Shown in pieces: positions 23,413 to 56,344 of a stretch of DNA of 64,000 nucleotides. Position numbers and translations under genes: made by a program. Position 1 is the stretch's first letter, and each line of letters begins with the position of its first letter. Origin of the DNA: Marchantia polymorpha subsp. ruderalis (taxonomy: Eukaryota > Streptophyta > Marchantiopsida > Marchantiales > Marchantiaceae). The notes below the pieces were generated by a model. It was not told the DNA's origin. It saw nothing but the letters and a program-made list of their open reading frames with translations, and ran no database searches. Where the stretch lies: NCBI GenBank assembly GCA_037833965.1, contig AP031356.1, positions 19,180,501-19,244,500 of the forward strand. The letters run 5' to 3'.

Positions 23413-23455
23413 AATTGCGTCAACACCGGGGTATGCGAGCAGCCATGCTCGGTGA

Positions 23456-28372: not shown

Positions 28373-28408
28373 CCTTCTAAGTCCTAACTAACACTACACT
28401 GCACTACG

Positions 28409-37316: not shown

Positions 37317-37352
37317 CGTAGTGCAGTGTAGTGCTAGGTAGGACTTAGAAGG

Positions 37353-37359
37353 TATAAAA
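37353..37359 (+). promoter_or_regulatory. LTR TATA box (A 5' LTR), probable element promoter
   Basis: TATAAAA lies 37 bp after the stop codon of the LTR ORF. A hairpin-forming inverted repeat (CCAGGC/GCCTGG, 37365-37381) follows. Transcription of genomic RNA would start near 37384. RNA starting here omits the 5' ORF copy but includes the one in the 3' LTR. Confidence 0.65.
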
Positions 37360-38324
37360 TAGTTCCAGGCGTTTTGCCTGGGGTTCTTTCCCATCAGAAG
37401 TGCAGATCAGGAACCCATTTCCTTTGCGTGTTTGTGTCCTTGAGTTCTGTCACCACGCAGGAGGAGTTACAACTTAGCGTTCCGCATTTTGTAGCTGAAG
37501 GCCTTCGGCCGAATGTTCAGAGCTAGTACATTGGTTAGAGACTTGAGTAGTTCGGATCTGCACCTGCGTGTGACTGCCGATGCTCAGAGCCAGTGACTAG
37601 TTAGATACTTGAACAGTTTCGCCCCTACACCTTCGAGTGTTCCTTTCTGATTGTACTCCTTTGGGATTTTTCCCCTGAATGCCAAGGTGAAGTTTTACTA
37701 CTTCGTGTAAGCCTTGGTTGTAAATTCAGGTTACGCTGCAGCAGGTGCCTTGAGGGTAACCCCTGTAGTATTTCTGGGAATGACAAGTGCCTGAGAATTC
37801 AAACTCTTCAATAGACTGTTGTTGTGTTACTGGAATGTTTCTCAGTGAGTCCTTCAGTGCGGACCTGTGTTCTCTGCGCGTTTTGTGAGTTGAGAGTGTT
37901 GTTCACCGCGTAGGAGTGACTTCGATCCGAAGTAGGCAGTCCAAACCGGGTTTCCTACACTAGCAGCAAGCTAGTGGAAGTGTTGTAAAAGCCGGAGTTG
38001 GAAGTCACTGCCCGCAGCTTTGCCGAGTGTGCTCGCGAGAGACTTTCCCCCTGAAATCTTGAAGTAGAGGTCCTAACGGATCTCTGGGTTGTGTTTCTGT
38101 AGTTTCAGGTGTGTGTGTGTGTGTGTTACGCTGCACTGTGCGACCTCCGAGTGCGCTCCGAGTGGACACTTGCAGTATTTCTGGGAGTGACAGTCGCCTG
38201 AGAATTCAAACTCCTCAATAGTCTGTTAAAACGTGACACTTTGTACCTTGTGTGTTCCTCTGTCCCTGTGGGTTCGACCTTTCTACCACTATATTGCAGT
38301 TTTAGCCTTTAGTGGGTTATTACA

Positions 38325-38346
38325 TAAGAAGCCGACAACTTCTTTT
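38325..38346 (+). other. Conserved 22-nt spacer between LTR and primer site
   Basis: The spacer holds AGAAG and CTTCT, which can pair as a small hairpin. It has the same length in A, B and C (38325-38346, 13753-13774, 23372-23393). Plant Ty3/gypsy primer sites usually start within a few bases of the LTR. Confidence 0.7.
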
Positions 38347-38365
38347 TGGCGCCGCTGCCGGGGAC
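38347..38365 (+). other. Primer binding site, tRNA-Asp type (element A)
   Basis: TGGCGCCGCTGCCGGGGAC pairs with the 3' end of plant tRNA-Asp, including CCA. This is the minus-strand priming site. Confidence 0.88.
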
Positions 38366-38410
38366 AGTTGCGTCAACACCGGGGTTTTTACGAGCAGCCA
38401 TGCTCGGTGA

Positions 38411-41242
38411 ATGTCGACTGGGGCTAGCGGGAGCAACCTAAGTGCTAGAGCTGTCCGCAAGTTCCGACGGGATTCAGAGAAGGCCGTGGAAGAGACACGG
38501 CGTCAAAACAAGAAAACACCAAAAAGAGTACCTAAGCCTAGTTCGGCCGACATTCTTGGGGAACCTGCCCCCGGCGACTCGGAACCAAACTTGGTGCTTA
38601 CAGTTCTACTAGATATTCCTTGCACGGACCCGCCTAGTGAAGTAGAACCGACCGCCCGAGAACCGTCGACAGACACACCGATGGCGGACGGACAAGCCAA
38701 TGTGCGGCTACCTCAGCCGATTACTAAACATTCCTACCCGAAGTACAAAGGGAGTGGGGATGACGACGATGCAGATTCATACATCAAGTTGTTCGAATCG
38801 GTGTCTATTGCCAATCGCGAGATCGCAGACGACGACCGACTAAGGATCTTTCCAAGCCTTATGCGGAAGAAAGCGAGGAGTTGGTACAATCACGAGAGCA
38901 TCGATCCGACTGGGTTGACAACATGGGCCCAGCTGAAGGAGAAGTTCCTTCGCCGCTTTCGCGAGCTCGGCTACGACAGTCGGGTTTTGACAAAGTTACG
39001 TAATTTGCATCGAGAGAAGAAGGAGAGTCTGCGTGACTACACTGAGAGATTTCTGGACCTCCTCGACAGAATACCGAAAACAGGACCAGGGTCCCCTTTC
39101 TCGGTACAACAAGCTGTGGATTGGTACGTGACCGGTTTAACTCGGGAGATGGAGACTTTTTGCCGACGCAGCAAGTGCGACACTATTGAGGATGTGATTG
39201 CATCGGCAGAAGCCTTCGAAACTTCCACTCTCAACCGAAGAGGGAGAGAGAGACGGGAGTCGAAGGAGCGAAAACCGAAGGGAGGGCGAAGACGACGTAG
39301 AGGTACAACTCCGTCATCGGAGGAATCGTCTTCGGACGAGAACCGTTCCTCATCCGAAGAAGAGGAAACCTCATCGTCGGAGGAGGAGAAGAAGAGGAAG
39401 AAGCATGGGTCAGCGAAGAAAAAGGGCATCCGACGAGTGACTACGGACAGAGCGCCGGGAGATATAGCTTCGAAGATGGAGACCCTTGTGAAGGACTTCG
39501 CCGATCTCAAGGTTCAAGTGGTAGGCGGGCATGATCGCCGAAAATCACCCGGGAGAGTGCGAGCGAACTTATGGTGTACTACGTGCGGGGCGGTGGGACA
39601 TGCAAACACCGAGTGCCTTACCACCCGTCCGTCATATCCAGTCAACGCAGTAGAGTGGGCACAACCGTACTATGGAGAGCACCCTCAGTACTATGGAGAG
39701 GCTAGCGAAGAGACAGCCTACGCCGTCCAGTCGGTTCCTACCCCTCCTGCAGTTTCAGCAATGCAAGTCCCACGATATATTCCGGTGGATCGGGCCACTA
39801 CAGTACCCGTGAGGCGGAGAGCACCTCCAGGGACGTTTGACCCACCGCCACCGCGAGCTTGTTATAATTGCGGGGAAGTCGGGCACTTCTCACCGCAGTG
39901 TCCCCATCCAAAAAGGCGAAACGATTATGCTCCGACATGTAGTAATTGCAAGAAGATCGGGCATACTGCGCCAGAGTGTGATCAGCCACCAGTCCCTCGG
40001 CCAGCGGTACGATTTGTGAACACTCCTGCCAAGGAGGACGTCCAAGTTAACCAGGTCGAAGTAGGTTCAGACGGGGATGACGAAGACGAAGAGTGGCCGG
40101 CTGAAGAGGTTATGTGCGCACGGGTCGAAACTCGTAGTTCCAAGAAATCGAAGGAGCAAGAGCGTGACACTCGCAAGCACGAACGGCGAACCGACGACCG
40201 GACGGGAAAAGGGAAGGAGAAGACATCCAGCAAGTCCGACTTGCGATCTGCTCGGAAGGCTTCGGCTACGAGAGAGGCACCAGCAGTGCGCCCCCAGACA
40301 GCAGTCGAGGACGAGCCAGTGCGCCTACTGAAACGGGACTATGCTCCGGATATCCGCAACGAGGTAACCAACCTGTTGAAGGAAGCGATCCGCACTCAAA
40401 AGGACCCACCGCGGCCAGACTTGACATCCTCCCTTGGGGCGAAGTTGGCAGCCACCGTGGAACCTCGCAGAGCGTCGCCGACCCCGGCGACTCAACGCGC
40501 CCACTATGACTTGGTCGAAGATCTCGGGAGTCGAAAAGTGAACATCACGTTCAAGCAGCTCTTGGAGGACAATAAGACGTATCGGAGAATGTTGATGCTT
40601 TCGCTACGGCATCCGCGGAAGCCGCGCGCATCCACATCCTCTCAAGTATATCAAGTGGAGAGCGAAGACCAAGGGCCACCAGAGATCGATGTGGAAATAG
40701 CAGGGTGTTGTGTACGCAGGGTGCCAATCGACTCTGGATCAGGAGTCAACATAATGACGGAGGATACAGCGAGAGCCTTGGGGTTCAGTCAATACGAACC
40801 CTCGAAGCGTGTGTTGAGATTAGCGGATCAGACGCGGAGAATGCCTGCAGGTATGCTGCGCAATGTCAAGACAATCATCGGGGGTGCGGACTTTCGGTTG
40901 ACGTATATCATCCTTCAACCGATGATGAAGCAGGGCTATGACGTTCTGCTCGGGCGACCATGGCTATATGGCGCACAAGTCAGATGTGATTGGCGAAGAC
41001 ATCGCCTTAAGTTTCCTCATCCTTCGGAACCGACCAAAACCATTACGGTGCCCTGGAATAGGGTCAGACACGAAGGAGAGACCCCATCGACAAGTGCAGG
41101 TTACACATCGGGCGAGGACAGTGAGTCGACCGCGCGATCGGATTCCAGTGGTACCGAATCCGATTACTTCGTGGGATTCGTTGCCTGCTGTTCGGTGGGA
41201 GAAGAAGAAGAGACGGAAGCTATTCAGCCGGAAGACGAATAG
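38411..41242 (+). CDS. gag: Gag-protease polyprotein of element A, 943 aa
   Basis: This ORF is intact. Gag assembles the particle and packages RNA; the protease cuts the polyprotein. Visible parts: Gag core at about 120-220 (SYIKLFESVSI, RKKARSWYNHES, LRDYTERFLDLL); a Ser/Glu tract ending in Lys at about 295-335; CX2CX4HX4C zinc knuckles at about 387-402, 483-498 and 509-523; Arg/Lys/Glu-rich linker; aspartic protease with IDSGSGVNIM at about 771-780. The ORF ends TAG at 41240-41242, in frame with pol. Three knuckles with the first set apart is more than the usual one or two. The start ATG follows TGCTCGGTGA and is shared by B and C. Confidence 0.95.
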   Translation: MSTGASGSNLSARAVRKFRRDSEKAVEETRRQNKKTPKRVPKPSSADILGEPAPGDSEPNLVLTVLLDIPCTDPPSEVEPTAREPSTDTPMADGQANVRLPQPITKHSYPKYKGSGDDDDADSYIKLFESVSIANREIADDDRLRIFPSLMRKKARSWYNHESIDPTGLTTWAQLKEKFLRRFRELGYDSRVLTKLRNLHREKKESLRDYTERFLDLLDRIPKTGPGSPFSVQQAVDWYVTGLTREMETFCRRSKCDTIEDVIASAEAFETSTLNRRGRERRESKERKPKGGRRRRRGTTPSSEESSSDENRSSSEEEETSSSEEEKKRKKHGSAKKKGIRRVTTDRAPGDIASKMETLVKDFADLKVQVVGGHDRRKSPGRVRANLWCTTCGAVGHANTECLTTRPSYPVNAVEWAQPYYGEHPQYYGEASEETAYAVQSVPTPPAVSAMQVPRYIPVDRATTVPVRRRAPPGTFDPPPPRACYNCGEVGHFSPQCPHPKRRNDYAPTCSNCKKIGHTAPECDQPPVPRPAVRFVNTPAKEDVQVNQVEVGSDGDDEDEEWPAEEVMCARVETRSSKKSKEQERDTRKHERRTDDRTGKGKEKTSSKSDLRSARKASATREAPAVRPQTAVEDEPVRLLKRDYAPDIRNEVTNLLKEAIRTQKDPPRPDLTSSLGAKLAATVEPRRASPTPATQRAHYDLVEDLGSRKVNITFKQLLEDNKTYRRMLMLSLRHPRKPRASTSSQVYQVESEDQGPPEIDVEIAGCCVRRVPIDSGSGVNIMTEDTARALGFSQYEPSKRVLRLADQTRRMPAGMLRNVKTIIGGADFRLTYIILQPMMKQGYDVLLGRPWLYGAQVRCDWRRHRLKFPHPSEPTKTITVPWNRVRHEGETPSTSAGYTSGEDSESTARSDSSGTESDYFVGFVACCSVGEEEETEAIQPEDE

Positions 41243-41248
41243 CAATTA
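41240..41248 (+). promoter_or_regulatory. Stop-codon readthrough context UAG CAA UUA (element A)
   Basis: The gag stop is followed by CAA TTA. This is the known CAR-YYA context that lets ribosomes read through UAG in tobacco mosaic virus and relatives. Pol is in the same frame and has no ATG until about 62 codons further on, so readthrough is the simplest way to make Gag-Pol. Confidence 0.75.
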
Positions 41249-44083
41249 ACTGTGGGACTGGGAAGGAGTGAGACGAGTCACACCGAGGGCATTGTCGACC
41301 CTAGTGACTGTCACGAAGTACAACTTAGTCCCGGCAAGCGCTTGAAGGTATCAAGCGCAGTGAGAGGAGACGAGCTAAGGAAAGTACAGGCATTCCTTAG
41401 CCATTATGTCGACGTCTTCGCCTGGAAGATCGAAGACATGAAGGGGATACCTGCACGGTATGGGGAACACCGTATCGATTTACTGGACGACTCAGTACCC
41501 ATACGACAGCGCCAGTATCGCCTCAACCCAAAATACTCCTTGCTAGTTAAAGAGGAGATAGATAAGTACTTGAGCGCTGGTATTATTTACCCTGTACTCA
41601 GCAGTGAGTGGGTTTCGCCGATTGTTATCGTACCCAAGAAGTTGACGGGTAAGATACGAGTGTGTCAGGATTTCCGGAAGTTGAATGCAGCAACACGCAA
41701 GGATCATCACCCGTTACCATTCACGGATGCCATTCTAGACCATGTCGCAGGACATGAATGTTATAGCTTCCTGGATGGGTTCTCAGGTTACAATCAGGTG
41801 TCTATCCGTGAACAGGACAAGGATAAAACTACGTTCACAACCGACTGGGGAACTTACGCATACCACAAGATGCCCTTCGGTCTGTGCAACGCGCCTGCCA
41901 CCTTTCAACGGATGATGACCAATATCTTTCAGGAACAACTGAGGAAGTTCCTGGAAATATTCATAGATGACTTCTGTGTCTTTGGGAAGCGGTCTGAACA
42001 CCTAAGTCACTTGAAGCAGACCTTCGATAAATGTAGAGAGAGCAGTTTATCACTGCATCCCGAGAAGTGCTTTTTCTTTATGACTAGTGGGATCTTGTTG
42101 GGTCATCGGGTCTCGGCAGACGGCATTGCGGTGGACATCGAGAAGGTCAAGGTTATACTCGAGCTTGAGCCACCCACGAATCTAAGAGAGCTGCGAGCAT
42201 TCCTGGGTCATGTGGGCTACTACCGAAGATTCATACACCTGTATGCAATACTGGCGGCGGACCTGACCAAGTTGTTGAAGAAGGACGAGCCTTATGCTTG
42301 GGGTGCGAACCAGCAGTCAGCCTTTGAGACTCTTAAAGCGAAACTCACGACTGCTCCCGTACTAAGGAGTCCAGACTGGAATCGACCATTCCATGTTTAC
42401 GTTGACACCTCGGCATTCGCCATCGGTGTAGTACTGAGTCAAAAGGATGACAACAAAAAGGACTACCCGATCTACTTCGCGAGCCGACAGTTGTCTCTAG
42501 TAGAGCGGAAGTACACCACGACGGAGAGAGAAGCGTTGGGGATGGTGTACTCCTGTAAAAAGTTCCGTCACTACCTAATCTGCTACGAGTTTGTGTTCCA
42601 TGTGGACCACTACGCATTGCAACACCTAGTCAAGAAAGCCGACCTATCCGGTCGGATCGCCAGGTGGGTGTTGTTACTACAAGAGTTCACCTACACAGTC
42701 CAGACCAGGAAAGGGGTGCACCACGAAAATGCGGATTACTTGTCCCGACTATGGACCCAGCCGACAGAGGAGGAATTGGTGGACGATTTTCCAGATGAAG
42801 AGTTATTTCAGTTGTCTGCAGGACATGAGTCCCGCTATGCCGACCTGTATCGATATTTACTAACCCTCCAGTGTCCCGAAGGCATGGATTTGGAACAGCG
42901 AACTGTCTTTATTCATAAGGCAGGTCCGTACCAACTCCAGCAGGGGGTTTTGTTCAAGAAGATGGCAGATGAGCGCTTATGCAGATGCCTGGAGGAATCA
43001 GAGGTACCAAGAATAGTGAGTGCGATGCATACTGAGGAGGCGGGTGGACACTATGCCACCAGGAACACGGTCACAAAGATCCTAAATGCGGGGTATTGGT
43101 GGCCGACCATGTTTAAGGATGTTCTCGATTACATCCGCAAGTGCAACAGTTGCCAGAGGACGGGGAGACCGACGCCTACAACACGCTGGCCCCTGACTCC
43201 CATCATGCCTCTAGCACCCTTCGAAAAATGGGGTATTGACTTTGTAGGGCCGATCCAACCAGTGACTAGAAGTACACGAAGGCGCTACATTCTGGTAGCA
43301 ACGGACTACGCCACCAAAATGGTAGAGGCCAGGGCCACCAGAAGGGATGATGCTGCCACAGTGGCCGCATTCTTGTTTGAGTCGATCATCACACGCTACG
43401 GATGTCCCTTAGAGCTAGTCAGCGACCGGGGCACGCATTTTCTGAATCAGATCATCGAAGATCTGACACGGTATTTCCACATCAAGCACCGGAAGACTAC
43501 TCCATACAATCCCAAGGCAAATGGATTGACGGAGAAGTCCAATGGTCTGCTGTGTAAAATACTACTCAAGGTCACGGTGAATCACGCTCACGACTGGGAT
43601 ACGAAGCTAGCAGCCGCTCTATGGGCATACCGGACAGCTGAGAAGATCACGACCAAACAGACACCATACTTTCTGGTGTATGGGCAACACCCGATCCTCC
43701 CGATCGAATTTGAAGTACCCACCCAACGAACGTTGGATTTGCAAAGGATGGGCGCAGAGGAGAGTCAGCTCTACAGGTTACAGGAGGTCACGCTGCTGGA
43801 TGAGAGGAGACGAGACGCCGAAGATCGCACCAGGAAAATCCAGCTCCGCCGAAAGGAGAGATACGATGAAAAGATCAAACCGGTACTACTGCAGGCGGGT
43901 GATTTGGCATTGCTCTACGATAGCAGGCATGCCAGATTCCCAGGCAAACTGCACCTAAGGTGGATGGGACCTTACAGGGTTGTCGAAGTCTTCCCGAATG
44001 GATCCATCCAACTTGCGGACCTGGCCGGCGATTTGTTAGGCACCCGAGTGAACGGGTGGCGGTTGAAGAAATACCACATGTGA
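41243..44083 (+). CDS. pol: Pol of element A: reverse transcriptase, RNase H, integrase
   Basis: The frame is open from the gag UAG to TGA at 44081-44083, 946 codons, and is likely made as a Gag-Pol readthrough product. RT (about residues 100-270) shows QDFRKLNAATRKDHH, FLDGFSGYNQV, PFGLCNAPATFQRMM and FIDDF, the catalytic Asp pair with Phe in place of the usual Tyr. RNase H starts near FHVYVDTSAFAIG (about 380). Integrase has an HHCC finger (MHTEE...GGHYAT, CNSCQRTG), then Asp in IDFVGP, Asp in SDRGTHF and Glu in TEKSNG with exactly 35 residues between the last two. The C-terminus ends GTRVNGWRLKKYHM with no chromodomain. All catalytic residues are present, so the enzyme may be active. Confidence 0.96.
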   Translation, partial: QLTVGLGRSETSHTEGIVDPSDCHEVQLSPGKRLKVSSAVRGDELRKVQAFLSHYVDVFAWKIEDMKGIPARYGEHRIDLLDDSVPIRQRQYRLNPKYSLLVKEEIDKYLSAGIIYPVLSSEWVSPIVIVPKKLTGKIRVCQDFRKLNAATRKDHHPLPFTDAILDHVAGHECYSFLDGFSGYNQVSIREQDKDKTTFTTDWGTYAYHKMPFGLCNAPATFQRMMTNIFQEQLRKFLEIFIDDFCVFGKRSEHLSHLKQTFDKCRESSLSLHPEKCFFFMTSGILLGHRVSADGIAVDIEKVKVILELEPPTNLRELRAFLGHVGYYRRFIHLYAILAADLTKLLKKDEPYAWGANQQSAFETLKAKLTTAPVLRSPDWNRPFHVYVDTSAFAIGVVLSQKDDNKKDYPIYFASRQLSLVERKYTTTEREALGMVYSCKKFRHYLICYEFVFHVDHYALQHLVKKADLSGRIARWVLLLQEFTYTVQTRKGVHHENADYLSRLWTQPTEEELVDDFPDEELFQLSAGHESRYADLYRYLLTLQCPEGMDLEQRTVFIHKAGPYQLQQGVLFKKMADERLCRCLEESEVPRIVSAMHTEEAGGHYATRNTVTKILNAGYWWPTMFKDVLDYIRKCNSCQRTGRPTPTTRWPLTPIMPLAPFEKWGIDFVGPIQPVTRSTRRRYILVATDYATKMVEARATRRDDAATVAAFLFESIITRYGCPLELVSDRGTHFLNQIIEDLTRYFHIKHRKTTPYNPKANGLTEKSNGLLCKILLKVTVNHAHDWDTKLAAALWAYRTAEKITTKQTPYFLVYGQHPILPIEFEVPTQRTLDLQRMGAEESQLYRLQEVTLLDERRRDAEDRTRKIQLRRKERYDEKIKPVLLQAGDLALLYDSRHARFPGKLHLRWMGPYRVVEVFPNGSIQLADLAGDLLGTRVNGWRLKKYHM

Positions 44084-44107
44084 GTGTTCGCGTGGGCGCT
44101 CACAATT

Positions 44108-44120
44108 GAGGAGGGGGGCA
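44108..44120 (+). other. Polypurine tract of element A
   Basis: GAGGAGGGGGGCA lies directly before the 3' LTR start at 44121. It is the expected plus-strand primer. Confidence 0.8.
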
Positions 44121-45364
44121 TGTGGTACCCCACTTTTGGCAATTTTGAGGAAATTAAAACATTTTTGGAAAACTGTACCCTGGCAGCATTGTAAATAGCC
44201 TTCGGTACATCAAAACAGAGTGAATCCGGAAGATCGCGGGGATTCTCGAGGGATCTTGTAGAATCTGGGATTTGGGGTGCCGCAGTAAGGACAGGCACCA
44301 CCCTCCCTGCGAGCTCTGCAGTTAGGATTTCTACGGCGCAAGGCGCAAAACCCGCCTTCGGAGGTTGCGTCCGCGGCTGTAGGGAAACCCTCCCTAATTA
44401 GGTCAAACCTCGGGCGCCTTGACCAAGTTAGGATTCCGTTGGAAAGAGCTCGACGCACTGATTCCAACGAGCCCAAGAACGCTTGGAACGGACGAGGACT
44501 TAGGGAGCTATCGCTATTGGAAGAAACGGAGGCGGTCGCCTACGGCGGAAGGAATTCGCCACCGGCGCGAATTCCGCCTACGCGGAAGGGGGAATCAAGT
44601 TTTGTCCTGTGCGCGGACGAAGGCGTTCGCCTGTGCACAGGCGAAGTAGGGTTAGGGAAGGCGCGAAGTCCGCCTACGCACAGGCGTCCGCCTGTGCACA
44701 GGCGCTTCGGCGGCGGCGGAAAATCCGCCTTGGGCCCTAGAAATGCGCCTTGTGAGGTAGAAAGTGTACGACGCCTTCCGCGCCAGCGCGGCGCCGCGTA
44801 CGTCGGAAGAGCCGCCAGAGTAATCAAATCGGTACGGACCATGCGGACGGGAAGGGTGGATACGCTCTTGGACGGACGGAGTTGCGGCGGCGGAAGCGCC
44901 GACGGAGAGACAAGGAACGGACAGGCTCGACGGAGACGGCTGACCACGGTCAACGCCTTCCGCGCCAGCGCGACGTAGCGCACGGAATTCGCCTGCGCAC
45001 AGGCGAACGCCTGTGCACTGGAGGATTAAGTTCCGCACCGGCGGAGAATCCGCCGAGGCTCCTGCCTGCGCACAGGCAGGAGTTGAACTTTTGTCCGACA
45101 TGCGGACACACGCGTCAAGGCAGAGGGGGATTGGCCGAGGGGCGGTACGAACAAGTGTACCGCGCAAGGCGGAAAACTCGCCTTCGGCGCTACGCCCCCA
45201 TGTCCGCAGGGTAATACGCTCGCGGAGTTCAAATCCGCCAATTCGAGCGTGAGAGTTTAATCGACGACGGCGGAGCGTGAAGCCGCGCGTGAGAGTGAAG
45301 ACCGTTCCAGCGTACAGCCGGCGCGGCCATCAAGTGAGACGTTCTTCACGATCAAGAGCCGACC

Positions 45365-48300
45365 ATGACCTTCGACCGGGCGGCGGAGAACGTCCCATTC
45401 TTGAATTCGCGATTCCAATCTCTTGTGCGCGCTGCGCGCATCCATCTGCTGGCTGCGGAACATTCTCGACGTCGTCGCACAGGAGATTTCTTGTTGATTG
45501 AGGGAGAAGTGAGTGCGCGTGATTTGGAATTGAGGGCGATTAGAGTTTGCCGAGAGAGAAAGAAACCCGGGCGGTGCGGAAGTAGAATGAGCGGGCGAGC
45601 GAACCCCAGGAACGCAATGACGAGACCGAGCAGATTGCGGATGGTGCCACTTCGCCTACCGCAGAACGGGCTGCGCGCTTTTGAGGAGCGCTTAATAGCA
45701 AGAAAGCTCGATTTCTTGCTATGGGGATGGAATTACATCTGTGCGAATATGGTGCGCGAGTGGCTAGAGCCACAGGGACCACCCTCGCGCGGATTGCGTC
45801 CGCATGTTGACCGGTGGACAGTCCAAGATTGGGCGCAGGCGTTGGGAAGATGTGCTGGCATGCCAGGGCATCTCCTTTTCGACAGTGAGAGCATCAAGGT
45901 GACCAAGCAAGAAGAGGCGCAATTTGTGGAGCTGTTCAAGACCGGGAGGTCAACCAAGAATGGGTACAGGACCCGTGATTACAAGGATCGATTTCGCCGG
46001 ACTTTGTCCGCGGCGCTGATGCAATTACTGCAGCCGCACCGCGCCTGCTACATCACATTGTGGCAGGTCTCTTTTGTGGAGTGCGTCATCGAGGGAACTC
46101 CAATTCACTGGGCGAGCATCCTGCACAGGGTGATGCGACAGCACGCGTTTGAGGAGAAAGGGGGAACTCTAAACCATCTTTCTCCTTTCCTCATCAATTT
46201 TTATCGACAGCGGAATTGTTTGACAGCGGCGGAGCTTGAACATTTTCCGCCATTGTCCATCGACCATCCCGGGAAGTATGTGCGGGAGAACGAGGTCGAC
46301 ACTGATGCAGAAGAGTCACCGACTTCTACCCCATCAAGACGGAGGGACGAAGGGAGACACACCCCTGCAGCGCGAGTGCCGCGGAAGCGGCAATGGAGGG
46401 AAGAGTCTGAAGAGGAGCAGCATCAAGAACCCTCTGCTCCCATTCGACCGCGGCCGCTGTGCGAGCCATACAGCCGGCCGAAGCAGAAGGCACGCAGACT
46501 GGTGTTACCAGCCGACAGTGCGGACACGGCGACAATTGCGACGGAGCAAGGAAGTGCGTCGCCAGAGAGGCGAGAGGAAGCGCGGACGACCGCAGGAGCG
46601 ACGGGCCACGCTGCAACCTCGACGGGAGAGAGGCCGCCTACGGGCCAAGGGCCTCCGGAGTTACCACGTGCGATGCGGACAGATGTTCCGTTTGCGGACG
46701 GACGAGCCTCCGCGGACCGGCGAACACAAGTGGACGTGGATCTACGCTTACGCGTGGGAAGGAGCAGTCCGCCTGTGCACAGGCGTTCACCTGTGCACAG
46801 GACACCTCCACACGTGCCGCCTGTGCACAGGCAAGAATCACCCCCGTTCCAACGTAGGAAGGGGAAGGAGCCGGCGGAAGAACCGCCTACGAGACACCGG
46901 CCCTCGGGGCCAGACCCTCCGGCGCACCACGCGCCGCAATTTGCGCCTTCGGCGCCTGGGCCTTCGAGCCGAGGAGATACGAGCAGAGAGCGTGCGGAGG
47001 CCACACCATCGGCGGGAAGTCCGCCGATAGATGCGCCTTCGGCGGTAGGGCCTATAGGCCAAGGAACATCGGGCGTGCGGCCCCCGGCCATGTCGCCTTC
47101 GGCGATAGATGTCCGCGGCGCTACGCCTGCGGCGGACAAGGCGCCGGCAAATGCGCCTGCGCACGGGCCGGGCACAGCCCCCACGGACCGATCAAGGGAG
47201 CAGCAGACGGAGGAGCGGAGTGACTGTTCGCGGGATGAAATCTCGATGCGCGATGCGCAATCCAACCCCGCGCAGCCACCCTCCGCTCAATCGCCTTCTG
47301 CGGCGGACGACGGCGGCAGAGAGGATGCGGTAGACAATCAACAAGCGAGAGACGGGGATGCCGCACGAGTACATTCGCCTTCCGCCTTAGACATTTTGGC
47401 GACGAGCAGCGAGGCTGCAGCCGTGCCTTCGCATGCAGCCCACGTCGACGACGTGCAGCCCCACTCGGGGCAGTCGCCGACGCAATCAATGGCGACTGAA
47501 ATTCTCCACTCGGATGATGACGACGGAGGCTCCACGGAAGAAATGTCAGGAGCAGAAGACACCGAGGAGGAGGAGGAGGAAATTGTTGGAGCGCCGGCGG
47601 CGGCGCTCTCTGAGCAGGTGATTCCGTTGCTGCGGTACTTGGATCGCAAGGTCGATAAATACGCCGACCCACTCCAGCCGGGATCTTACATCGAGTTAGT
47701 GCGCAGGCGGACTCGCACTAAAGTCCACACCAGCAAGCTATTAGCTAGAGTGGACCAGGAGCTGAGGGACTTGAAGGAGAAGCATGCGTGCTTGTGGGGT
47801 CAGTACAAGCTTAATCAGAAATTCTACAAGCACACCGAGAAGATGAAGGATGAGAAACTGGGCGAGCTCACCAAGGAGCAGGTGAAGGTCAAGGAAGCAC
47901 TCATTTCTGAGCAGGCCCAGAATCGGATTTTGTCAGAGGAGCTCGTGCGACAGACGCGGTTGTTGGAACAATGTCAGCTCGCACGGCAGGCGGATGAAGA
48001 GTTAATCCGCAGGTTGCAGTCAGAGTGTGGCGAATTGAGAGCGCAACGTGCTGAAGCCGAATCGCAATTAGTGATAATTGAAGAAGATCGCAGGAAGGAG
48101 GCGGATCGCACGAAGGTGGAGACGGCGAGGCGAGTCGCCCACTGTCTCAAGGGCTACGCCCACTGGGAAGTGAAGGCGCAGGAGAAACTCACACTGCGTG
48201 AGTTTGAATTGCGCGCAGCCGGGTTGTTGTCAGGCGACAGTAGGAGTCGGCGGAAGGTAGCAAAGAAGCTCTATGCCTTTCTGTCGAAGGCACAGGATAC

Positions 48301-48469
48301 CATGTCCGCCCTCGAGGGGGAGGTGTCCGCGGCGTTGCAGCGGTTGGGACTGCGCAGTCGAGCGGAAGACTGGCAGGGTAGGGAGTTAGTGCGCGGCAGT
48401 CGGCCGCGCAGGAGACGTAGTACAGGTTCCGCGGAGTGTAGTGTAGCGTGGTTCCGTGCAGGCGTGTAG
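45365..48469 (+). CDS. LTR-resident ORF, 1034 aa, unknown function (A 3' LTR)
   Basis: This is the intact second copy, differing from the 5' copy by a handful of residues and five missing codons in the disordered region. It lies 1.28 kb after the pol stop. It would be inside the 3' end of genomic RNA, the position where some plant Ty3/gypsy elements carry an extra or env-like ORF. No subgenomic splice site or internal start signal could be assigned. The layout is as in the 5' copy: Trp-rich folded part, disordered part, acidic patch (about 731-742) and coiled coil. A coiled coil suggests self-association. A nucleic-acid, chromatin or particle role is possible, but I do not assign one. Confidence 0.85.
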   Translation: MTFDRAAENVPFLNSRFQSLVRAARIHLLAAEHSRRRRTGDFLLIEGEVSARDLELRAIRVCRERKKPGRCGSRMSGRANPRNAMTRPSRLRMVPLRLPQNGLRAFEERLIARKLDFLLWGWNYICANMVREWLEPQGPPSRGLRPHVDRWTVQDWAQALGRCAGMPGHLLFDSESIKVTKQEEAQFVELFKTGRSTKNGYRTRDYKDRFRRTLSAALMQLLQPHRACYITLWQVSFVECVIEGTPIHWASILHRVMRQHAFEEKGGTLNHLSPFLINFYRQRNCLTAAELEHFPPLSIDHPGKYVRENEVDTDAEESPTSTPSRRRDEGRHTPAARVPRKRQWREESEEEQHQEPSAPIRPRPLCEPYSRPKQKARRLVLPADSADTATIATEQGSASPERREEARTTAGATGHAATSTGERPPTGQGPPELPRAMRTDVPFADGRASADRRTQVDVDLRLRVGRSSPPVHRRSPVHRTPPHVPPVHRQESPPFQRRKGKEPAEEPPTRHRPSGPDPPAHHAPQFAPSAPGPSSRGDTSRERAEATPSAGSPPIDAPSAVGPIGQGTSGVRPPAMSPSAIDVRGATPAADKAPANAPAHGPGTAPTDRSREQQTEERSDCSRDEISMRDAQSNPAQPPSAQSPSAADDGGREDAVDNQQARDGDAARVHSPSALDILATSSEAAAVPSHAAHVDDVQPHSGQSPTQSMATEILHSDDDDGGSTEEMSGAEDTEEEEEEIVGAPAAALSEQVIPLLRYLDRKVDKYADPLQPGSYIELVRRRTRTKVHTSKLLARVDQELRDLKEKHACLWGQYKLNQKFYKHTEKMKDEKLGELTKEQVKVKEALISEQAQNRILSEELVRQTRLLEQCQLARQADEELIRRLQSECGELRAQRAEAESQLVIIEEDRRKEADRTKVETARRVAHCLKGYAHWEVKAQEKLTLREFELRAAGLLSGDSRSRRKVAKKLYAFLSKAQDTMSALEGEVSAALQRLGLRSRAEDWQGRELVRGSRPRRRRSTGSAECSVAWFRAGV

Positions 48470-48505
48470 CGTAGTGCAGTGTAGTGCTAGGTAGGACTTA
48501 GAAGG

Positions 48506-48512
48506 TATAAAA
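48506..48512 (+). promoter_or_regulatory. LTR TATA box (A 3' LTR)
   Basis: TATAAAA with the downstream CCAGGC/GCCTGG inverted repeat is identical to the 5' LTR. It could drive transcription out of the element into pol of C. Confidence 0.55.
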
Positions 48513-49475
48513 TAGTTCCAGGCGTTTTGCCTGGGGTTCTTTCCCATCAGAAGTGCAGATCAGGAACCCATTTCCTTTGCGTGTTTGTGTCCTTGAGTTC
48601 TGTCACCACGCAGGAGGAGTTACAACTTAGCGTTCCGCATTTTGTAGCTGAAGGCCTTCGGCCGAATGTTCAGAGCTAGTACATTGGTTAGAGACTTGAG
48701 TAGTTCGGATCTGCACCTGCGTGTGACTGCCGATGCTCAGAGCCAGTGACTAGTTAGATACTTGAACAGTTTCGCCCCTACACCTTCGAGTGTTCCTTTC
48801 TGATTGTACTCCTTTGGGATTTTTCCCCTGAATGCCAAGGTGAAGTTTTACTACTTCGTGTAAGCCTTGGTTGTAAATTCAGGTTACGCTGCAGCAGGTG
48901 CCTTGAGGGTAACCCCTGTAGTATTTCTGGGAATGACAAGTGCCTGAGAATTCAAACTCTTCAATAGACTGTTGTTGTGTTACTGGAATGTTTCTCAGTG
49001 AGTCCTTCAGTGCGGACCTGTGTTCTCTGCGCGTTTTGTGAGTTGAGAGTGTTGTTCACCGCGTAGGAGTGACTTCGATCCGAAGTAGGCAGTCCAAACC
49101 GGGTTTCCTACACTAGCAGCAAGCTAGTGGAAGTGTTGTAAAAGCCGGAGTTGGAAGTCACTGCCCGCAGCTTTGCCGAGTGTGCTCGCGAGAGACTTTC
49201 CCCCTGAAATCTTGAAGTAGAGGTCCTAACGGATCTCTGGGTTGTGTTTCTGTAGTTTCAGGTGTGTGTGTGTGTGTTACGCTGCACTGTGCGACCTCCG
49301 AGTGCGCTCCGAGTGGACACTTGCAGTATTTCTGGGAGTGACAGTCGCCTGAGAATTCAAACTCCTCAATAGTCTGTTAAAACGTGACACTTTGTACCCT
49401 GTGTGTTCCTCTGTCCCTGTGGGTTCGACCTTTCTACCACTATATTGCAGTTTTAGCCTTTAGTGGGTTATTACA

Positions 49476-51013
49476 TGTACTCCTGCAAAAAGTTTCGACA
49501 CTACTAAATCTGCTACGAGTTTGTGTTCCATGTGGACCACTACGCATTGCAACACCTAGTCAAGAAAGCAGATCTGTCCGGTCGGATAGCCAGATGGGTG
49601 CTGTTGCTACAGGAGTTCACCTACACGGTCCAGACCAGGAAAGGGGTGCATCACGAAAATGCAAATTACTTATCCAGATTATGGACCCAGCCCACCGAGG
49701 AGGAACTGGTGGACGACTTTCCGGACGAACAGCTGTTTCAGTTGTCTGCGGGGCAGGAGTCCCGCTATGCAGAGCTGTACCGATATCTGCTAACGCTTCA
49801 GTGTCCCGAGGGCATGGACTTGGAACAAAGGACTGTCTTTATTCATAAGGCAGGCCCGTACCAACTCCAACAGGGAGTTTTGTTCAAGAAGATGGCAGAC
49901 GAACGTTTGTGCAGATGCCTGGAGGAATCAGAGGTCCCAAGGGTAGTAAGCGCGATGCACACCGAAGATGCGGTTGGACACTATGCCACCCGGAATACAG
50001 TCACAAAGATTGTGAATGCAGGGTATTGGTGGCTGATCATGTTTAAGGATGTTCTCGATTACATCCGAAAATGCGATAGTTGCCAGAGGACGGGGAGACC
50101 CACGCCTACGACACGGTGGCCCCTGACTCCCATCATGCCTCTAGCACCTTTCGAGAAGTGGGCCATCGACTTCGTAGGGCCAATACAACTAGTGACTAGG
50201 AACACACGAAGGCGCTACATTCTGGTCGCTACGGACTACGCCACCAAGATGGTGGAGGCCAAGGCCACGAGAAGAGATGATGCAGCCACAGTAGCAGCCT
50301 TTTTGTTTGAATCGATCATCACGCGCTACGGATGTCCTTTAGAGCTAGTCAGCGACCAGGGCACACACTTTTTGAACCAGATGATCGAAGATCTGACCCG
50401 GCATTTTCACATCAAGCACCGGAAGATTACCCCATACAATCCCAAGGCGAATGGATTGACGGAGAAGTCCAATGGTCTGTTGTGTAAAATACTGCTCAAG
50501 GTCACGGTAAACCACGCTTACGAATGGGATACGAAGTTAGCAGCCGCTCTGTGGGCGTACCGGACAGCTGAGAAGATTACGACGAAACAGACACCATACT
50601 TTCTGGTGTATGGTCAACATCCAATCCTCCCGATCGAATTCGAAGTACCCACCCAACGAACGTTGGACCTACAGAGGGTGAGTGTGGAGGAGAGTCAGCT
50701 CTGCAGATTACAGGAAGTCATAGTATTGGAAGAGAGGAGACGAGAAGCCGAGGAGCGCACCAGGAGAATACAGCTCCATAGAAAGGAGAGATACGATAAG
50801 AAGATCAAACCTATACTCCTTCAGAAGGGCGATTTGGCGCTGCTCTACGACAGCAGGCATGCTAGATTCCTAGGCAAACTGCACCTAAGATGGATGGGAC
50901 CATACAAGGTCGTCGAGGTCTTTCCGAATGGATCCATTCAACTTGCAGACTTAACTAGAGAGTTATTAGGCACCCGAGTGAAAGGGTGGCGATTGAAGAA
51001 ATATCACGTATGA
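49476..51013 (+). pseudogene. pol: pol of element C, third piece (RNase H end, integrase)
   Basis: This resumes C pol after element A with the duplicated TGTAC. An in-frame TAA lies at 49505-49507. The integrase part is then open to TGA at 51011-51013. The HHCC finger has HTEDAVGHYAT and CDSCQRTG; the catalytic core shows IDFVGP, VSDQGTHF (Arg changed to Gln beside the Asp) and LTEKSNG. The C-terminus is NGWRLKKYH-like, with Lys in place of Asn. Confidence 0.92.
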
Positions 51014-51036
51014 GTGTTCGCGTGGGCGCTCACAAT

Positions 51037-51050
51037 TGAGGAGGGGAGCA
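51037..51050 (+). other. Polypurine tract of element C
   Basis: TGAGGAGGGGAGCA precedes the 3' LTR start at 51051. Confidence 0.75.
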
Positions 51051-54000
51051 TGTGGTACCCCACTTTTGGTATTATTGAGTAAATTAAAACATTTTTGGAA
51101 AACTGTACCGCGGTAGCAGTGGAAACAGCCTTCGGTGCAACAAAACAGAGTGAAATTGGAAGATTGCAGAGATTCTCGAGAGAACTCGTAGAATCCAGGA
51201 GTTGGGTGCAAAGTCGGGGACGGACACCACCCTACATGTGGGCCCTGAAGGAATAACCCCTTCGGCGCAAGGCGCGAAATCCGCCTTCGGCGCTAGAGGA
51301 ATCCTTCAGAATTTGGTCAATTCCCAAACGCCTTGACTTGGTTAGGGTCTCGTTGGAAAGAGCTCGACGCGCTTATTCTAACGAGCCCAAGAACGCCACG
51401 AACGGGTGAGGACTCCGGGAGTTATGAAGGTCGCAAGATACTCAGCTTCTCGCCTACGAGTAGGCGAGGAAAGTTTGTCCTATGTGCGGACGAAGGCAGT
51501 TCGCCTACGCGTAGGCGAAATAGGGTTTTGACAACGGCGCATTGTCCGCCGCGAATGACGCCTACTCGTAGGCGAGGAAAACCTCTGCTCAGACGGACGA
51601 GCGAATTCCGCCTACGCACAGGCGCCTTCGGCGTCGGCAGGAAATCTGCCTTCGGCCCTGGAAATGCGCCTTCGGAGTTAGAAATTGTACGGCGCCTTCC
51701 GCGCCAGCGCAGCAGCGCGGAAGGGCGAGGACCCACTGGAGTAGCAAAATCCGTACGGACCGTACGGACTGTACGGACGGAACGGATGGGTGCGCCTTCG
51801 GTCGGACGGAGTTACGGCGATAAGAGCGCCGAGGGAGAGGCGAAAAATGGACAAACTGGACGGAGCCTGTTGACCGCGGTCAACGCCTTCGGTGCTAGCG
51901 CAACAGCGCGGACGGAACTTGCCTACGCGTAGGCGAGCGCCTACGCACAGGCAGATGAAGATCCGCGCCGGCGGAGACTCCGCCGGGATTCCGCCTACGC
52001 AGAAGGGAGTTCAACTTTTGTCCGATGCGCGGACGATCGCCTTCGGCGGAGGGGGATTGGCCGAAGAGTGGTACGAACGAGTGTAGCGCGCAAGGCAAGA
52101 AATCCACCTTCGGCGCTGCGCACCCGTGTCCGCTGCGTAGTACGCTAGCGGAGTTCAAATTTGCCAATTCAAGCGTGTGAGTTAAATCGGCGTCGGCGGA
52201 GCGTGAAGCCGCGCGTGAGAGAGGAGACCGTTTTAGCGCGGAGCCGGAGCGGACATCAAGTGATTCGACCTCACGACCGAGAGCCGACCATGACCTTCGA
52301 CCAGGAGACGGAGGACGCCCCATTCTTGAATTCGCGATTTCATTTTCTAGTGGGAGCTGCGCGCGTCCACCTGCTAGCTGTTAAACATTCTAGACATCGC
52401 CGCGCGGAGTATTACTTGCTGTCTTAGAGAGAATTGAGTGCGCGCGATTTGAAATTAAGGGAGATTAGAATTTGCAGAGGGAGCAAGAAGCTCGAGCGGA
52501 GCAGAGAGAGAGTTGATGAGCAAGCTAATTTCAAGAACGCGATGTCGAAACTGAACAGATTGCGGATGCTGCCGCTCCGGCTTCCACAGAACGGGTTGCG
52601 TGCCTTCGAGAAGCGGCTTATTGCAAGAAAACTTGATTTCTTGCTGTGGGGATGGAATTACATTTGTGTGGACATGGTGCGCGAATGGCTGGAACCACAG
52701 CGACCACCTACGCGCGGATTGCGTCCGCATGTAGATCGTTGGACCGTCCAAGATTGGGTGCAGGCATTGGGGAGGTGTGCCGGCATCGATGGATACCTCC
52801 TCTTTGATAGTGAGAGCGTCAAGGTGTCGAAGCAGGACGAGGCGCAATTTGTGGAATTGTTCAAACGGGAGAGGTCTACCAAGAATGGGTACAAGACCCG
52901 CGACTACAAAGATCGCTTTCGCCGAACTTTAGCGGCAGCGCTGCTGCAATTGCTGCAGCCACACCGCACCTCATATATCACCTTGTGGCAGGTTTCTTTT
53001 GTGGAGCTCATCTTGGCCGGAGCTCCAGTTCACTGGGCGAGCATCCTACACAGAGTGATGCGACAGCACGCCTTCGAGGAGAAGGGGGAAACTCTCAATC
53101 ACCTCTCCCCTTTCTTGATAAATTTCTATCGGCAGAGGAATTGTTTGACCGCGGCGGAGCTCGCTCGCTTTCCGACATTGTCCGTCGACCATCCCGGAAA
53201 GTATGTGCGGGATAACGAGGTCGACACCGATGCAGAGGATTCACCAGCTTCTACTCCGCCGACACGGCGGGACGAGGGAAGAAGCACACCCGCAACAAGA
53301 GTGCCGCGGAAGCGGCGATGGAGAGAGGAATCAAAGGAGGAGCAGCATCGAGAACCCGCGGCTCCCATACGACAGCGGCCACTGCACGAAGTGTGCAGCC
53401 GGCCGAAGCAGAAGGCGCGCAGGCTTGTGTTACCAGCCAGCAGTGCGGACACGGCGACGATCGCCACGGAGAAGGGAAGTGCGTCACCGGAGAGGGTCGA
53501 GAGAGCGTGGACGTCCGCAGGAGCGACGGACCACGCTACACCTCCGGCGGACGAGAGGCGGCCTTCGGGCCAAGGGCCTCCGGAGTTGCCACGTGCGATG
53601 CGGACGAGTGTTCCGCCTACGCACAGGCGAATTCCAGCGGATAGGCGACCTCAAGCGGACGTGGACCTCCGCCTACGCGTAGGCAGAGAAAGTTCGCCTA
53701 CGCACAGGCGGCCGCCTACAAGTAGGCAGGATTCACCCCCGATACAACGTAGGAAGGGGAAGTAGCCGGCGGAAGATCCGCCTTCGGATCAAGGACCTTC
53801 AGGACCAGACCCTCCGGCGTATAACGCGCCGCGATTTGCGCCTTCGGCGCCAGGGCCTCCGGGCCAACGAGTTTCGAGCAAGGAGCGTGCGGAGTCCGCA
53901 CCTTCGGCGGGTAATCCGCCGGCAGATGCGCCTTCGGCGGTAGGGCCTTCGGGGCCAGGTACATCGAGCGAGCGGCCTTCGGCTCTGTCGCCTTTGGCGC

Positions 54001-56344
54001 TGTGCCTGCTGCGGACCAAGCGCCGGTACTTGGGCCTACGCGCAGGCCAGACGCAGCCCTCACGCAGGACCTAACGGAGGAGCGGATTGACTGTCCGCGG
54101 GACGAAATTTGGGTGCGCGATGCGCAATTACACCCCGCACAGACACATTCCGCTCGATCGCCTTCGGCGGCGGACGTCGGCGGCGAAGAGGACACGGTCG
54201 ACGAGCGACAGGCGGATGATGGGGATGTAGCACGGCCACATTCACCCACCGCCTTGGACATTTTAGCGGGGAGCAGCGAAGCTGCAGGAGTGCCTTCGGC
54301 GGCAGCACCCGTAGACCATTCGCAGCCCCACTCGGGTAAGTCGCCAACGCAATCAATGGCGACCGAAATCCTTCCATCGGATGATGACGAAGGAGGCTCC
54401 ACAGAAGCAATGTCGGGATCGGGAGACACCGAGGAGGAGGAGGAGGAAATTGTTGGAGCGCCGGCGGCGGCGCTCTCTGAGCAGGTAATACCTCTGCTGA
54501 GGTACTTGGATCGCAAATTTGATAAATACGCAGATCCACTCCAGCCGGGGTCATACATCGAGTTAGTGCGCAGGCGAACTCGCACTAAAGTCCACACCAG
54601 CAAGCTACTAACTAGGGTGGATCGGGAACTTAAGGATTTACGGGAGAAGCATGCGTGTTTGTGGGGACAGTATAATCTCGTGCGGAAGTCGCACACCCAC
54701 TACGACGCATTGAAGCAGGCGAGACTGGAAGAGCTCACCAGGGATGTGGTGAAGACCACGGAAGAACTGATTTCTGAGAAGACTCAAAATCAGGTTCTGT
54801 CAGAGGAGCTCGTGCTACAGACGCGGTTGTTGGCGGAGTGTCAGCTCGCACGACAGGCGGATGAGGATTTAATCCGCAGGCTGCAGTCGGAGTGCGGGGA
54901 ATTGAGAGCTCAGCGTGCGGAGGCCGAATCGCAGTTGGTGGTAATTGAAGATGATCGCAGGCGAGAGGCGGATCGCACGAAGGAGGAGATGGCGGAGCAA
55001 GTCGCTCACTGTCTCAAGGGCTACGCCCACTGGGAAGTGGCGGCGCAGGAGAAACTCACACTGCGTGAGTTGGACCTTCGTGCAGCCGGGTTGTTGTCAG
55101 GTGACAGTAGGAGTCGGCGGCGGGTGGCGAAGAAGTTAGACTCTTTTCTGTCAAAGGCGCGGGATACCATGTCCACCCTCGAAGTGGAGGTGTCCGCGGT
55201 GTTGCAGCGTTTGGGACTGCGCAGTCGAGCTGAAGACTGGCAGGGTAGAGAGTTAGTGCGCGGCAGTCCGTCGCGCAGGAGGCGAAGCACAAGTTCCGCG
55301 GAGTGTAGTGTAGCGTGGTTCCGTGCCGGCGTGTAGCGTAGTGCAGTGTAGTGCTAGTTAGGATTTAGAAGGTATAAAGTAGTTCAAGGCGTCTTGCCTT
55401 GTGATCTTTCCCAACATCAGAAGTGCAGATCAGGAACTCATTTTCTCTGCGTGTTTGTGTCCTTAGTTCTGTCACCACACACGAGGAGCTACACCCTAGC
55501 GATCCGCATTGTGTAGCTGAAGGCCTTCGGCCGAATGTTCAGAGCTAGTACATTGGTTAGAGACTTGAGTAGTTCAGATCTACACCTGCGGGTGATTGCC
55601 GATGCTCAGAGCCAGTGACTAGTTAGATACTTGAATAGTTTCGCCCCTACACCTTCAAGTGTTTGTTTCTGATTGTTCTCCTTCGGGATTTTTCCCCTGA
55701 ATGCCAAAGTGAAGTTTTGCTACTTCGTGTAAGCCTTGGTTGTAAATTCAGGTTACGCTGCAGCAGGTGCCTTTGGGGTAACCCCTGTAGTATTTCTGGG
55801 AATGACAAGTGCCTAAGAATTCAAACTCTTCAATAGATTGTTATGGTGTGGTACTGAAATGTTTCTCAGTGAGTCCTTCTGTGCGGACCTGTGTTCTCTG
55901 CGCGTTTTGTGAGTGGAGAGTGTTGTTCACCGCGTATGAGTGACTTCGATCCGAAGTAGGCAGTCCAAACCGGGTTTCCTACGCTAGCAGCAAGCTAGTG
56001 GAAGTGTTGTAAAAGCCGGAGTTGGGAGTCACTACCCGCAGCTTCGCTGAGTGTACTCTTGAGAGACCTTCCCCCTGAAATCTTGAGTAGAGGTCCTAAC
56101 GGATCTCTGGGTTGTGATTCTGTAGTTTCAGGTGTGTGTGTGTGTGTTACGCTGCACTGTGCGACCTCCGAGTGCGCTCCGAGTGGACACTTGCAGTATT
56201 TCTGGGAGTGACAGTCGCCTGAGAATTCAAACTCCTCAATAGTCTATTAAATGTGACACTTTGTACCCTGTGTGTTCCTCTGTCCCTGTGGGTTCGACCT
56301 TTCTACCACTATATTACAGTTTTAGCCTTTAGTGGGTTATTACA
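51051..56344 (+). repeat. 3' LTR of element C, 5294 bp
   Basis: This is a full-length LTR from TGTGGTACCCCAC to TTATTACA. It holds the GTTGACCGCGGTCAAC palindrome (51869-51884), an ORF copy with stops, a TATA box (55373-55378) with the CAAGGC/GCCTTG inverted repeat, and R/U5. It borders non-repeat AT-rich DNA at 56345, so it marks the outer edge of the nest. Confidence 0.93.
52290..55336 (+). pseudogene. LTR-resident ORF in the C 3' LTR, broken
   Basis: The conserved ATG is followed by 45 codons and an in-frame TAG at 52425-52427. The frame then stays open to TAG at 53763-53765 (a GAG codon changed by one base). A frameshift lies between 53766 and 54002. The C-terminal 444 codons (54002-55336) are open and hold the acidic patch and complete coiled coil. 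The sequence is clearly diverged from the A copies, yet the folded and coiled-coil parts align without large gaps. Confidence 0.86.

What the first reader, a model, noticed from the sequence alone, without database searches (positions are those of the whole stretch)
44121..49475. Giant 5.36-kb LTR that carries a 1034-codon ORF inside U3
The LTR boundaries are fixed by near-identical copies, a perfect target duplication, a primer site and a polypurine tract, so the ORF truly lies inside the LTR and is duplicated with it. It is intact in both LTRs of A, open for 462 codons in G, and recognisable with the same start in B, C, D, E and F. An LTR-resident gene of this size is not part of standard plant Ty3/gypsy organisation; the nearest functional parallel I know is the retroviral sag gene in the mouse mammary tumour virus LTR. 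Because the TATA follows the ORF, genomic RNA would carry it only once, after pol.
Basis: partly seen in the sequence, partly recalled or inferred. Interest (0 to 1): 0.93.

Follow-up and report, generated by a model that had tools for sequence, protein, structure and literature searches.

The report
Selected gene inside retrotransposon LTRs
A very abundant jumping element in a Marchantia-like liverwort keeps a large protein gene inside its long end repeats; selection preserves that gene, and it can survive intact even where only a single repeat is left behind.

Summary
Element A (32953-49475) is a Ty3-type LTR retrotransposon with 5.37/5.36-kb LTRs, target duplication TGTAC, primer site and polypurine tract. 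Each LTR carries one open frame (1039 and 1034 codons). It lies wholly in U3 and ends 36 nt before the conserved TATA box. It is a gene, not chance: 20 genome copies picked by noncoding LTR sequence give dN/dS 0.26 (bootstrap 0.20-0.35); the two forward control frames give 1.28 and 1.17. Two divergent LTR copies of the same genome (49-59% identical proteins, dS about 0.8-1.7) also hold the ORF, partly broken, inside solo LTRs with perfect target duplications, at dN/dS near 0.2. The genome has 6,357 matches to the LTR 3' end but only 1,347 joined to the internal leader, so solo LTRs probably predominate; several of those read keep the ORF whole. All named relatives found are hypothetical proteins of Marchantia polymorpha. 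The ORF matches no Pfam family, has no membrane segment and no similarity to gag. Most likely the polypurine tract lies upstream of a sense accessory gene that follows pol, so reverse transcription copies this gene into both LTRs. The protein probably acts in trans as a nucleic-acid-associated regulator (inferred). Expression was not testable here.

The parts
32953..38324 (+). left LTR of element A (5,372 bp)
   Evidence: 99.6% identical over aligned bases to the right LTR; TGTGG...TTACA; flank TGTAC
44121..49475 (+). right LTR of element A (5,355 bp)
   Evidence: same; polypurine tract before it, TGTAC after it
32948..32952 (.). target duplication TGTAC, left
49476..49480 (.). target duplication TGTAC, right
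34197..37316 (+). LTR-resident ORF in the left LTR, 1039 aa
45365..48469 (+). LTR-resident ORF in the right LTR, 1034 aa: Arg-rich start; conserved domain about 91-360 (dN/dS about 0.1); Pro/Ala/Ser-rich linker about 361-720; conserved motif from about 745 and heptad-like stretches to about 1000
   Evidence: heptads by a simple script, not a coiled-coil predictor
44121..48536 (+). U3 (end approximate, set about 30 nt after the TATA; R start inferred)
   Evidence: TATA position
48506..48514 (+). TATA box TATAAAATA
   Evidence: GGTATAAA kept in 40 of 41 copies with letters there; TATAAA also after the ORF in L051 and L052
38347..38364 (+). primer binding site TGGCGCCGCTGCCGGGGA (tRNA-Asp type as recalled)
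   Evidence: same in elements A, B and C
38411..41242 (+). gag-protease ORF ending UAG CAA UUA
   Evidence: Pfam gag, zinc knuckles, protease-like; stop context in 3 of 3 elements
41252..44083 (+). RT-RNase H-integrase frame, in frame with gag-protease behind the stop
44108..44120 (+). polypurine tract directly before the LTR
   Evidence: similar junction in right LTRs of A, B and C; 1,238 genome matches to the junction pattern
22267..56344 (+). element B: partial left LTR 22267-23371, internal pieces 23372-27390, 32763-32953 and 49476-51050, right LTR 51051-56344 with broken ORF; A inserted in its pol
3987..22217 (+). element C: left LTR 3987-5759 plus 10941-13752, internal 13753-19529, right LTR 19530-22217; duplication CACTC
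5760..10912 (+). solo LTR D, duplication AAGCA; ORF in two frames
27394..32757 (-). solo LTR E, flanks CCAGT/CCAGA (4 of 5 alike); ORF in several frames
61369..64000 (+). LTR start F, ORF open for 462 codons to the window end
1..3568 (-). partial LTR G with ORF relics

Best explanation
A Ty3-type (Tat-like) retrotransposon of a Marchantia genome in which a sense accessory gene follows pol, while the polypurine tract that primes the second DNA strand lies upstream of that gene. Everything between this tract and the promoter, a 4.4-kb U3 with the 1034-codon gene, is therefore copied into both LTRs at each transposition. Shown: anatomy, LTR residence in the copies read, purifying selection, conservation across divergent copies, intact ORFs in some solo LTRs. 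Inferred from anatomy: full-length RNA starts behind the ORF, carries it once at its 3' end after pol, and the protein is made from a spliced or otherwise shortened RNA, or from a promoter in the 1.2 kb of U3 before the ORF. Inferred from architecture (basic start, mostly helical domain, low-complexity linker, acidic stretch, heptad-like end, no membrane segment): an intracellular accessory protein acting in trans on the element's nucleic acid or chromatin, such as a regulator or anti-silencing factor.
For: LTR boundaries, duplications, primer site and polypurine tract. dN/dS 0.26 (0.20-0.35) in 20 ORF-blind copies, frames +1/+2 1.28 and 1.17. Conserved domain 0.14, C-terminal part 0.18, linker 0.42. 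For scale, gag-protease 0.15-0.17 and pol 0.05-0.06 between A and B or C. L051 and L052: ORF inside divergent solo LTRs with duplications GCACT and ATTTG. Pattern counts. No transmembrane stretch.
Against: No transcript or peptide data. No match to the TATA-like patterns tried before the ORF in the A LTR and no convincing conserved splice pair, so the expression route is open. Both AlphaFold models are too poor to read a fold (pLDDT 38 and 44). One reverse frame (rev2) also gave low ratios (0.19-0.61 against the same 8 window copies), because its third codon positions coincide with those of the ORF; stops were met in it in 9 of 10 comparisons. Noncoding U3 read as pseudo-frames gave 0.61-1.05 and 0.68, so the noncoding baseline is somewhat below 1. 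Two 60-codon stretches just upstream of the ATG gave about 0.5, though that frame has stops.
Confidence: 0.78

Rival explanations
1. The gene is selected only as part of complete elements, translated from spliced genomic RNA like a retroviral accessory or env gene. LTR residence is a by-product of where the polypurine tract sits, and ORFs in solo LTRs are silent leftovers.
For: The only TATA match in the A LTR lies behind the ORF. In the ORF-blind sample only 6 of 20 copies keep the frame from the usual start to the usual end. Changes private to one sequence (20 copies plus A's right LTR) are less often synonymous (85 synonymous, 96 nonsynonymous) than shared ones (67, 49), as expected if copies decay after insertion.
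Against: No conserved donor and acceptor pair bridging gag-pol was found, with a crude scan. Some solo LTRs keep the whole ORF: 10 of 10 in the ORF-scored sample, 3 of 6 in the ORF-blind one, though they may simply be young.
Confidence: 0.5
2. A host gene captured into U3.
For: The ORF itself has no Pfam or NCBIfam relative, so its origin is unknown.
Against: The three protein searches returned only Marchantia polymorpha hypothetical proteins among named hits, many of them divergent fragments. The gene is shared by LTR copies with dS about 0.8-1.7, so any capture is old.
Confidence: 0.1
3. An envelope-like gene.
For: Sense orientation and position after pol in the RNA.
Against: No hydrophobic segment: best 19-residue Kyte-Doolittle mean 1.14.
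Confidence: 0.03
4. A chance open frame in GC-rich DNA.
For: The window is 54% G+C and the LTR also has a 280-aa reverse ORF.
Against: Simulated maximum 372 aa; dN/dS; protein conservation with M. polymorpha proteins and between divergent copies.
Confidence: 0.01

Closest known systems
Sense additional ORFs between pol and 3' LTR (aORF-3S / eORF-3'F) of plant LTR retrotransposons (PMC7264820, part 1 of 3 and passages read; PMC6317226, passages)
   Same: Extra sense gene downstream of pol in the RNA, function unknown, likely accessory
   Different: The review speaks of aORFs in the internal region; here the gene is inside U3 and duplicated in both LTRs and solo LTRs
TRP28/Transposase_28, plant mobile domain and Athila ORF-1 proteins of Retand, Ogre and Athila elements (PMC11963269, abstract and discussion read; PMC6317226, passages)
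   Same: Accessory proteins of non-chromovirus elements; TRP28 is suggested to bind DNA and regulate transposition
   Different: No Pfam match to any of them at E up to 10; TRP28 ORFs are antisense and internal
ORF0 of Retrosat2/RIRE3/RIRE8 (PMC3485330, passages read)
   Same: Large LTRs (about 3 kb or more) and an extra ORF that evolves faster than the gag-pol ORF
   Different: ORF0 is described as upstream of gag-pol, not in the LTR
sag in the MMTV LTR; nef reaching into HIV U3 (recalled)
   Same: Accessory gene within or reaching into U3, after pol in the RNA
   Different: Unrelated host and element; homology not tested; this ORF is about three times longer than sag (recalled)

Membership tests
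Ty3/gypsy LTR retrotransposon | gag-PR-RT-RH-INT order between LTRs with primer site and polypurine tract | tested here: met
Tat lineage | extra (archaeal-type) RNase H domain | tested here: not met
   [not shown]
[not shown]
   no reference RT set at hand
Athila/Tat superclade | tRNA-Asp-type primer site | tested here: inconclusive
   TGGCGCCGCTGCCGGGGA; the tRNA assignment is recalled, not checked against a tRNA
aORF-3S / eORF-3'F | ORF between pol and the 3' LTR | tested here: not met
   the ORF lies behind the polypurine tract, inside the LTR
env-like aORF | transmembrane domain | tested here: not met
Transposase_28 / plant mobile domain / Athila ORF-1 | Pfam match | tested here: not met
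   no match at E up to 10
LTR-resident accessory gene (sag-like by position) | ORF wholly within U3, kept by selection | tested here: met
LTR-resident accessory gene (sag-like by position) | expressed from LTR transcripts | not testable with these tools
   no RNA data

The most novel reading that the evidence does not exclude
The LTR itself is a gene: a promoter in the 5' part of U3 drives the ORF and the R/U5 of the same LTR ends its RNA, so every intact solo LTR is a free-standing copy of an accessory (for example anti-silencing) gene, and recombination that removes gag-pol spreads and preserves this gene in a very large number of copies, in effect a satellite gene family made by a retrotransposon.
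Probability: 0.3. Interest if true: 0.88.

Novelty: new variant of a known kind. Interest (0 to 1): 0.74.

Why it matters
LTRs are normally regulatory only, and solo-LTR formation is taken to erase coding capacity. Here a gene of about 1,000 codons is part of the LTR. Overall it is less constrained than gag-protease (0.26-0.38 against 0.15-0.17), but its core domain is held as tightly (0.14). It sits in an LTR family with more than 6,000 matches to its 3' end in one genome of a genetically tractable plant genus, and it can survive solo-LTR formation. That makes testable how a coding LTR is transcribed, whether solo LTRs act in trans on active elements, and how the place of a polypurine tract can put a gene into the LTR.

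Tried and rejected
AlphaFold2 on the conserved domain, first with 10 and then with 43 sequences, gave mean pLDDT 38 and 44; no fold search was run on such models. Pfam, NCBIfam, PDB sequence and Rfam searches gave nothing usable; the weak Pfam hits among the relatives or on the C-terminal piece (CENP-K E 0.0018 in 2 of 5 members, an extensin model 0.00019 in 1, DUF5580 0.11) look like coiled-coil or low-complexity matches and were not pursued. Origin from gag not supported. The palindrome CCTGYGCACAGG in U3 and in the ORF linker (61 hits, counting both strands, against 0.02 expected) was considered as a binding site for the ORF protein, but it is absent from L051 and L052, so it is family-specific. 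Splice and second-promoter scans were inconclusive. P0073 looked like a spliced integrase-ORF model but is continuous in genomic DNA here over residues 19-259, probably a deletion junction. Literature: judged by titles and abstract starts of the listed papers, searches listed no paper on a gene inside plant LTRs, and one search found no paper with its phrases (open-licence PMC only). Two of the three papers that one search found with 'inside the LTR' were opened: PMC4031123 (passages; predicted ORFs in a nested contig, three of them matching LTRs, no LTR-resident gene described) and PMC8282616 (passage; not about this); the third, PMC11302176, was not opened.
Full report
What is there. The window lies at G000:C7:19180501-19244500 of a 241-Mb genome in 9 contigs. 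The organism is very probably a Marchantia: all named relatives of the ORF in three protein searches are Marchantia polymorpha subsp. ruderalis hypothetical proteins, one of which (P0081) matches this genome in two pieces at 99 and 100%, another (P0073) at 92%, another (P0007) only at up to 66%. The window is a nest of one LTR family. Element A (32953-49475, duplication TGTAC) sits in the pol of element B. Element C (3987-22217, CACTC), solo LTRs D (AAGCA) and E (CCAGT/CCAGA), and two partial copies at the window ends complete the picture.

Anatomy of A. Left LTR 5,372 bp, right LTR 5,355 bp; primer site at 38347; gag-protease ORF 38411-41242; RT-RNase H-integrase frame 41252-44083; polypurine tract; right LTR. 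The LTR ORF runs from LTR position 1245 to 4349; the TATA box follows after 36 nt, so about 4.4 kb of the LTR is U3 and the ORF lies wholly in it. The ATG is kept in 47 of 47 copies with letters there and GGTATAAA in 40 of 41 (50 copies pooled from the window and two genome samples, 20 of them picked by ORF score).

Chance excluded. The longest ATG ORF in 300 Markov-1 simulated LTRs was 372 aa. Ten window copies were compared with A's right LTR. For the 8 with more than 100 comparable codons, A's own left LTR (0.57, 14 changes) left out, the in-frame ratio is 0.16-0.40; the ninth has 30 codons (0.17). For the same 8, frames +1 and +2 give 0.70-2.14; rev0 and rev1 give 0.82-1.97; rev2 gives 0.19-0.61, because it shares third positions with the ORF, and stops were met in it in 9 of all 10 comparisons. 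Pseudo-frames in noncoding U3 gave 0.61-1.05, so the noncoding baseline is somewhat below 1. Two upstream 60-codon stretches gave about 0.5 although that frame is closed by stops.

Genome-wide tests. (a) ORF-scored sample: 46 rows were reported, with 44 of 13,252 first-look candidates scored; 42 rows are full length (A's two LTRs among them), of which 39 have no stop, and four further rows are the halves of two copies split in frame. I fetched 20 of the 42. In 19 of 20 the ORF lies in a complete TGTGG...TTACA LTR (L016 matches only from LTR position 562). Eighteen of 20 have frames of 1033-1046 codons. Ten of 20 are solo LTRs with identical 5-bp flanks, all ten with the whole ORF; 3 have polypurine tract before and primer site after (tandem), 2 are left and 4 right LTRs. 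Pooled dN/dS is 0.21 over 231 pairs of 22 copies, biased by the selection for protein score. (b) ORF-blind sample by LTR positions 1-600: 41 matches, 40 of 2,350 candidates scored. Six of 20 keep the frame from the usual start to the usual end, and one more is open for 1035 codons with another end. Six of 20 are solo LTRs with perfect duplications; three of these six have the whole ORF. For L032 the sampled LTR ends at position 1526 and the script measured an inverted neighbour instead; seven copies were cut to their first LTR part before counting. dN/dS: ORF 0.26 (bootstrap 0.20-0.35), residues 1-90 0.27 (0.08-0.88), 91-360 0.14, 361-720 0.42, 721-1034 0.18, frames +1/+2 1.28 and 1.17; U3 read as a pseudo-frame 0.68. 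Changes private to one of 21 sequences: 85 synonymous and 96 nonsynonymous; shared changes: 67 and 49. (c) Divergent copies: two stretches chosen from the P0007 and P0081 searches both turned out to be solo LTRs, L051 (GCACT) and L052 (ATTTG), with a recognisable, broken ORF inside and TATAAA after it (one stop in L051; two frames and a stop in L052). Protein identity is 49-59% and dN/dS 0.19-0.22 to the A ORF at dS 0.84-1.7. Between A and B or C, gag-protease gives 0.15-0.17 and pol 0.05-0.06, so the ORF as a whole is less constrained than gag-protease and its core domain about as much.

Abundance. With up to one mismatch, the LTR 3' end has 6,357 matches, the 3' end joined to the internal leader 1,347, and the polypurine tract joined to the LTR start 1,238; reversed-pattern controls gave 0, 0 and 1. 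If each leader match stood for an element with two LTRs, some 3,660 LTR ends would be unpaired. This is a rough figure, because the leader may have diverged, elements may be truncated and tandem arrays share LTRs. How many of the 6,357 carry the ORF was not counted.

The protein. An Arg-rich start; a domain of about 91-360 shared with many divergent M. polymorpha proteins (118 hits at E up to 10, some unnamed); a Pro/Ala/Ser-rich linker; an acidic stretch; a conserved LLRYLDRK...ELVRRRTRTKV motif; heptad-like stretches at about 787-1000 by a simple script. No Pfam match for this ORF, no PDB sequence match, no hydrophobic segment, no relation to gag. The predicted models are unusable.

How it probably works. 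The full-length RNA starts behind the ORF (TATA) and so carries it once, after pol. The second DNA strand is primed at the polypurine tract upstream of the ORF, so the ORF becomes U3 and is copied into both LTRs. This follows from standard LTR-element replication (established knowledge) and the anatomy seen here. How the protein is made (splicing, or a second promoter in the first 1.2 kb of U3) is open: no match there to the TATA-like patterns tried and no clear splice pair. Its role is inferred: a trans-acting, non-membrane accessory protein, perhaps nucleic-acid-binding as proposed for TRP28 (PMC11963269, abstract and discussion read).

Verdict. Real, selected, abundant and unusual in location. 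I call it a new variant of a known kind (accessory gene of an LTR retrotransposon), with a bolder reading, that the LTR is a free-standing gene, left open.

Noticed in passing
41240-41248 (also in elements B and C): gag-protease ends in UAG CAA UUA, the tobacco-mosaic-type leaky stop context (recalled), with pol in the same frame behind it; conserved in 3 of 3 elements, suggesting read-through.
   Followed up: partly
44630, 44691, 44992, 45065, 46772, 46790, 46820 and other LTR copies: Palindrome CCTGYGCACAGG: 61 hits counting both strands, 0.02 expected; in U3 and in the ORF linker, where it encodes PVHR; 3 linker copies in A's right LTR, 4 in its left. Absent from L051 and L052.
   Followed up: partly
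G000 C4 about 14.58-14.63 Mb; C4 about 20.82-20.86 Mb; C8 about 9.86-9.90 Mb: pol or ORF copies repeat every 11.19-11.20 kb, and L013, L014 and L026 (C4 and C7) have a polypurine tract before and a primer site after the LTR: tandem arrays of LTR-internal units.
   Followed up: partly
G000:C7:18969266-18969994: An annotated M. polymorpha protein (P0073) joins integrase to the LTR-ORF domain; here residues 19-259 match without an intron, probably a deletion junction read as a gene.
   Followed up: partly
46423-47265 minus: A 280-aa reverse ORF overlaps the LTR ORF; whole-length reverse frames hold stops, and no sign was found that it is coding, though it was not tested by itself.
   Followed up: partly
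LTR positions about 4350-5355 (48470-49475): In the six older window copies that cover it, the R/U5 part is 93.9-96.6% identical to A while the longer other segments are mostly 80-92%, which suggests constraint on noncoding sequence; among the young copies it is not more conserved than the ORF (1.5% against 1.4% difference).
   Followed up: no
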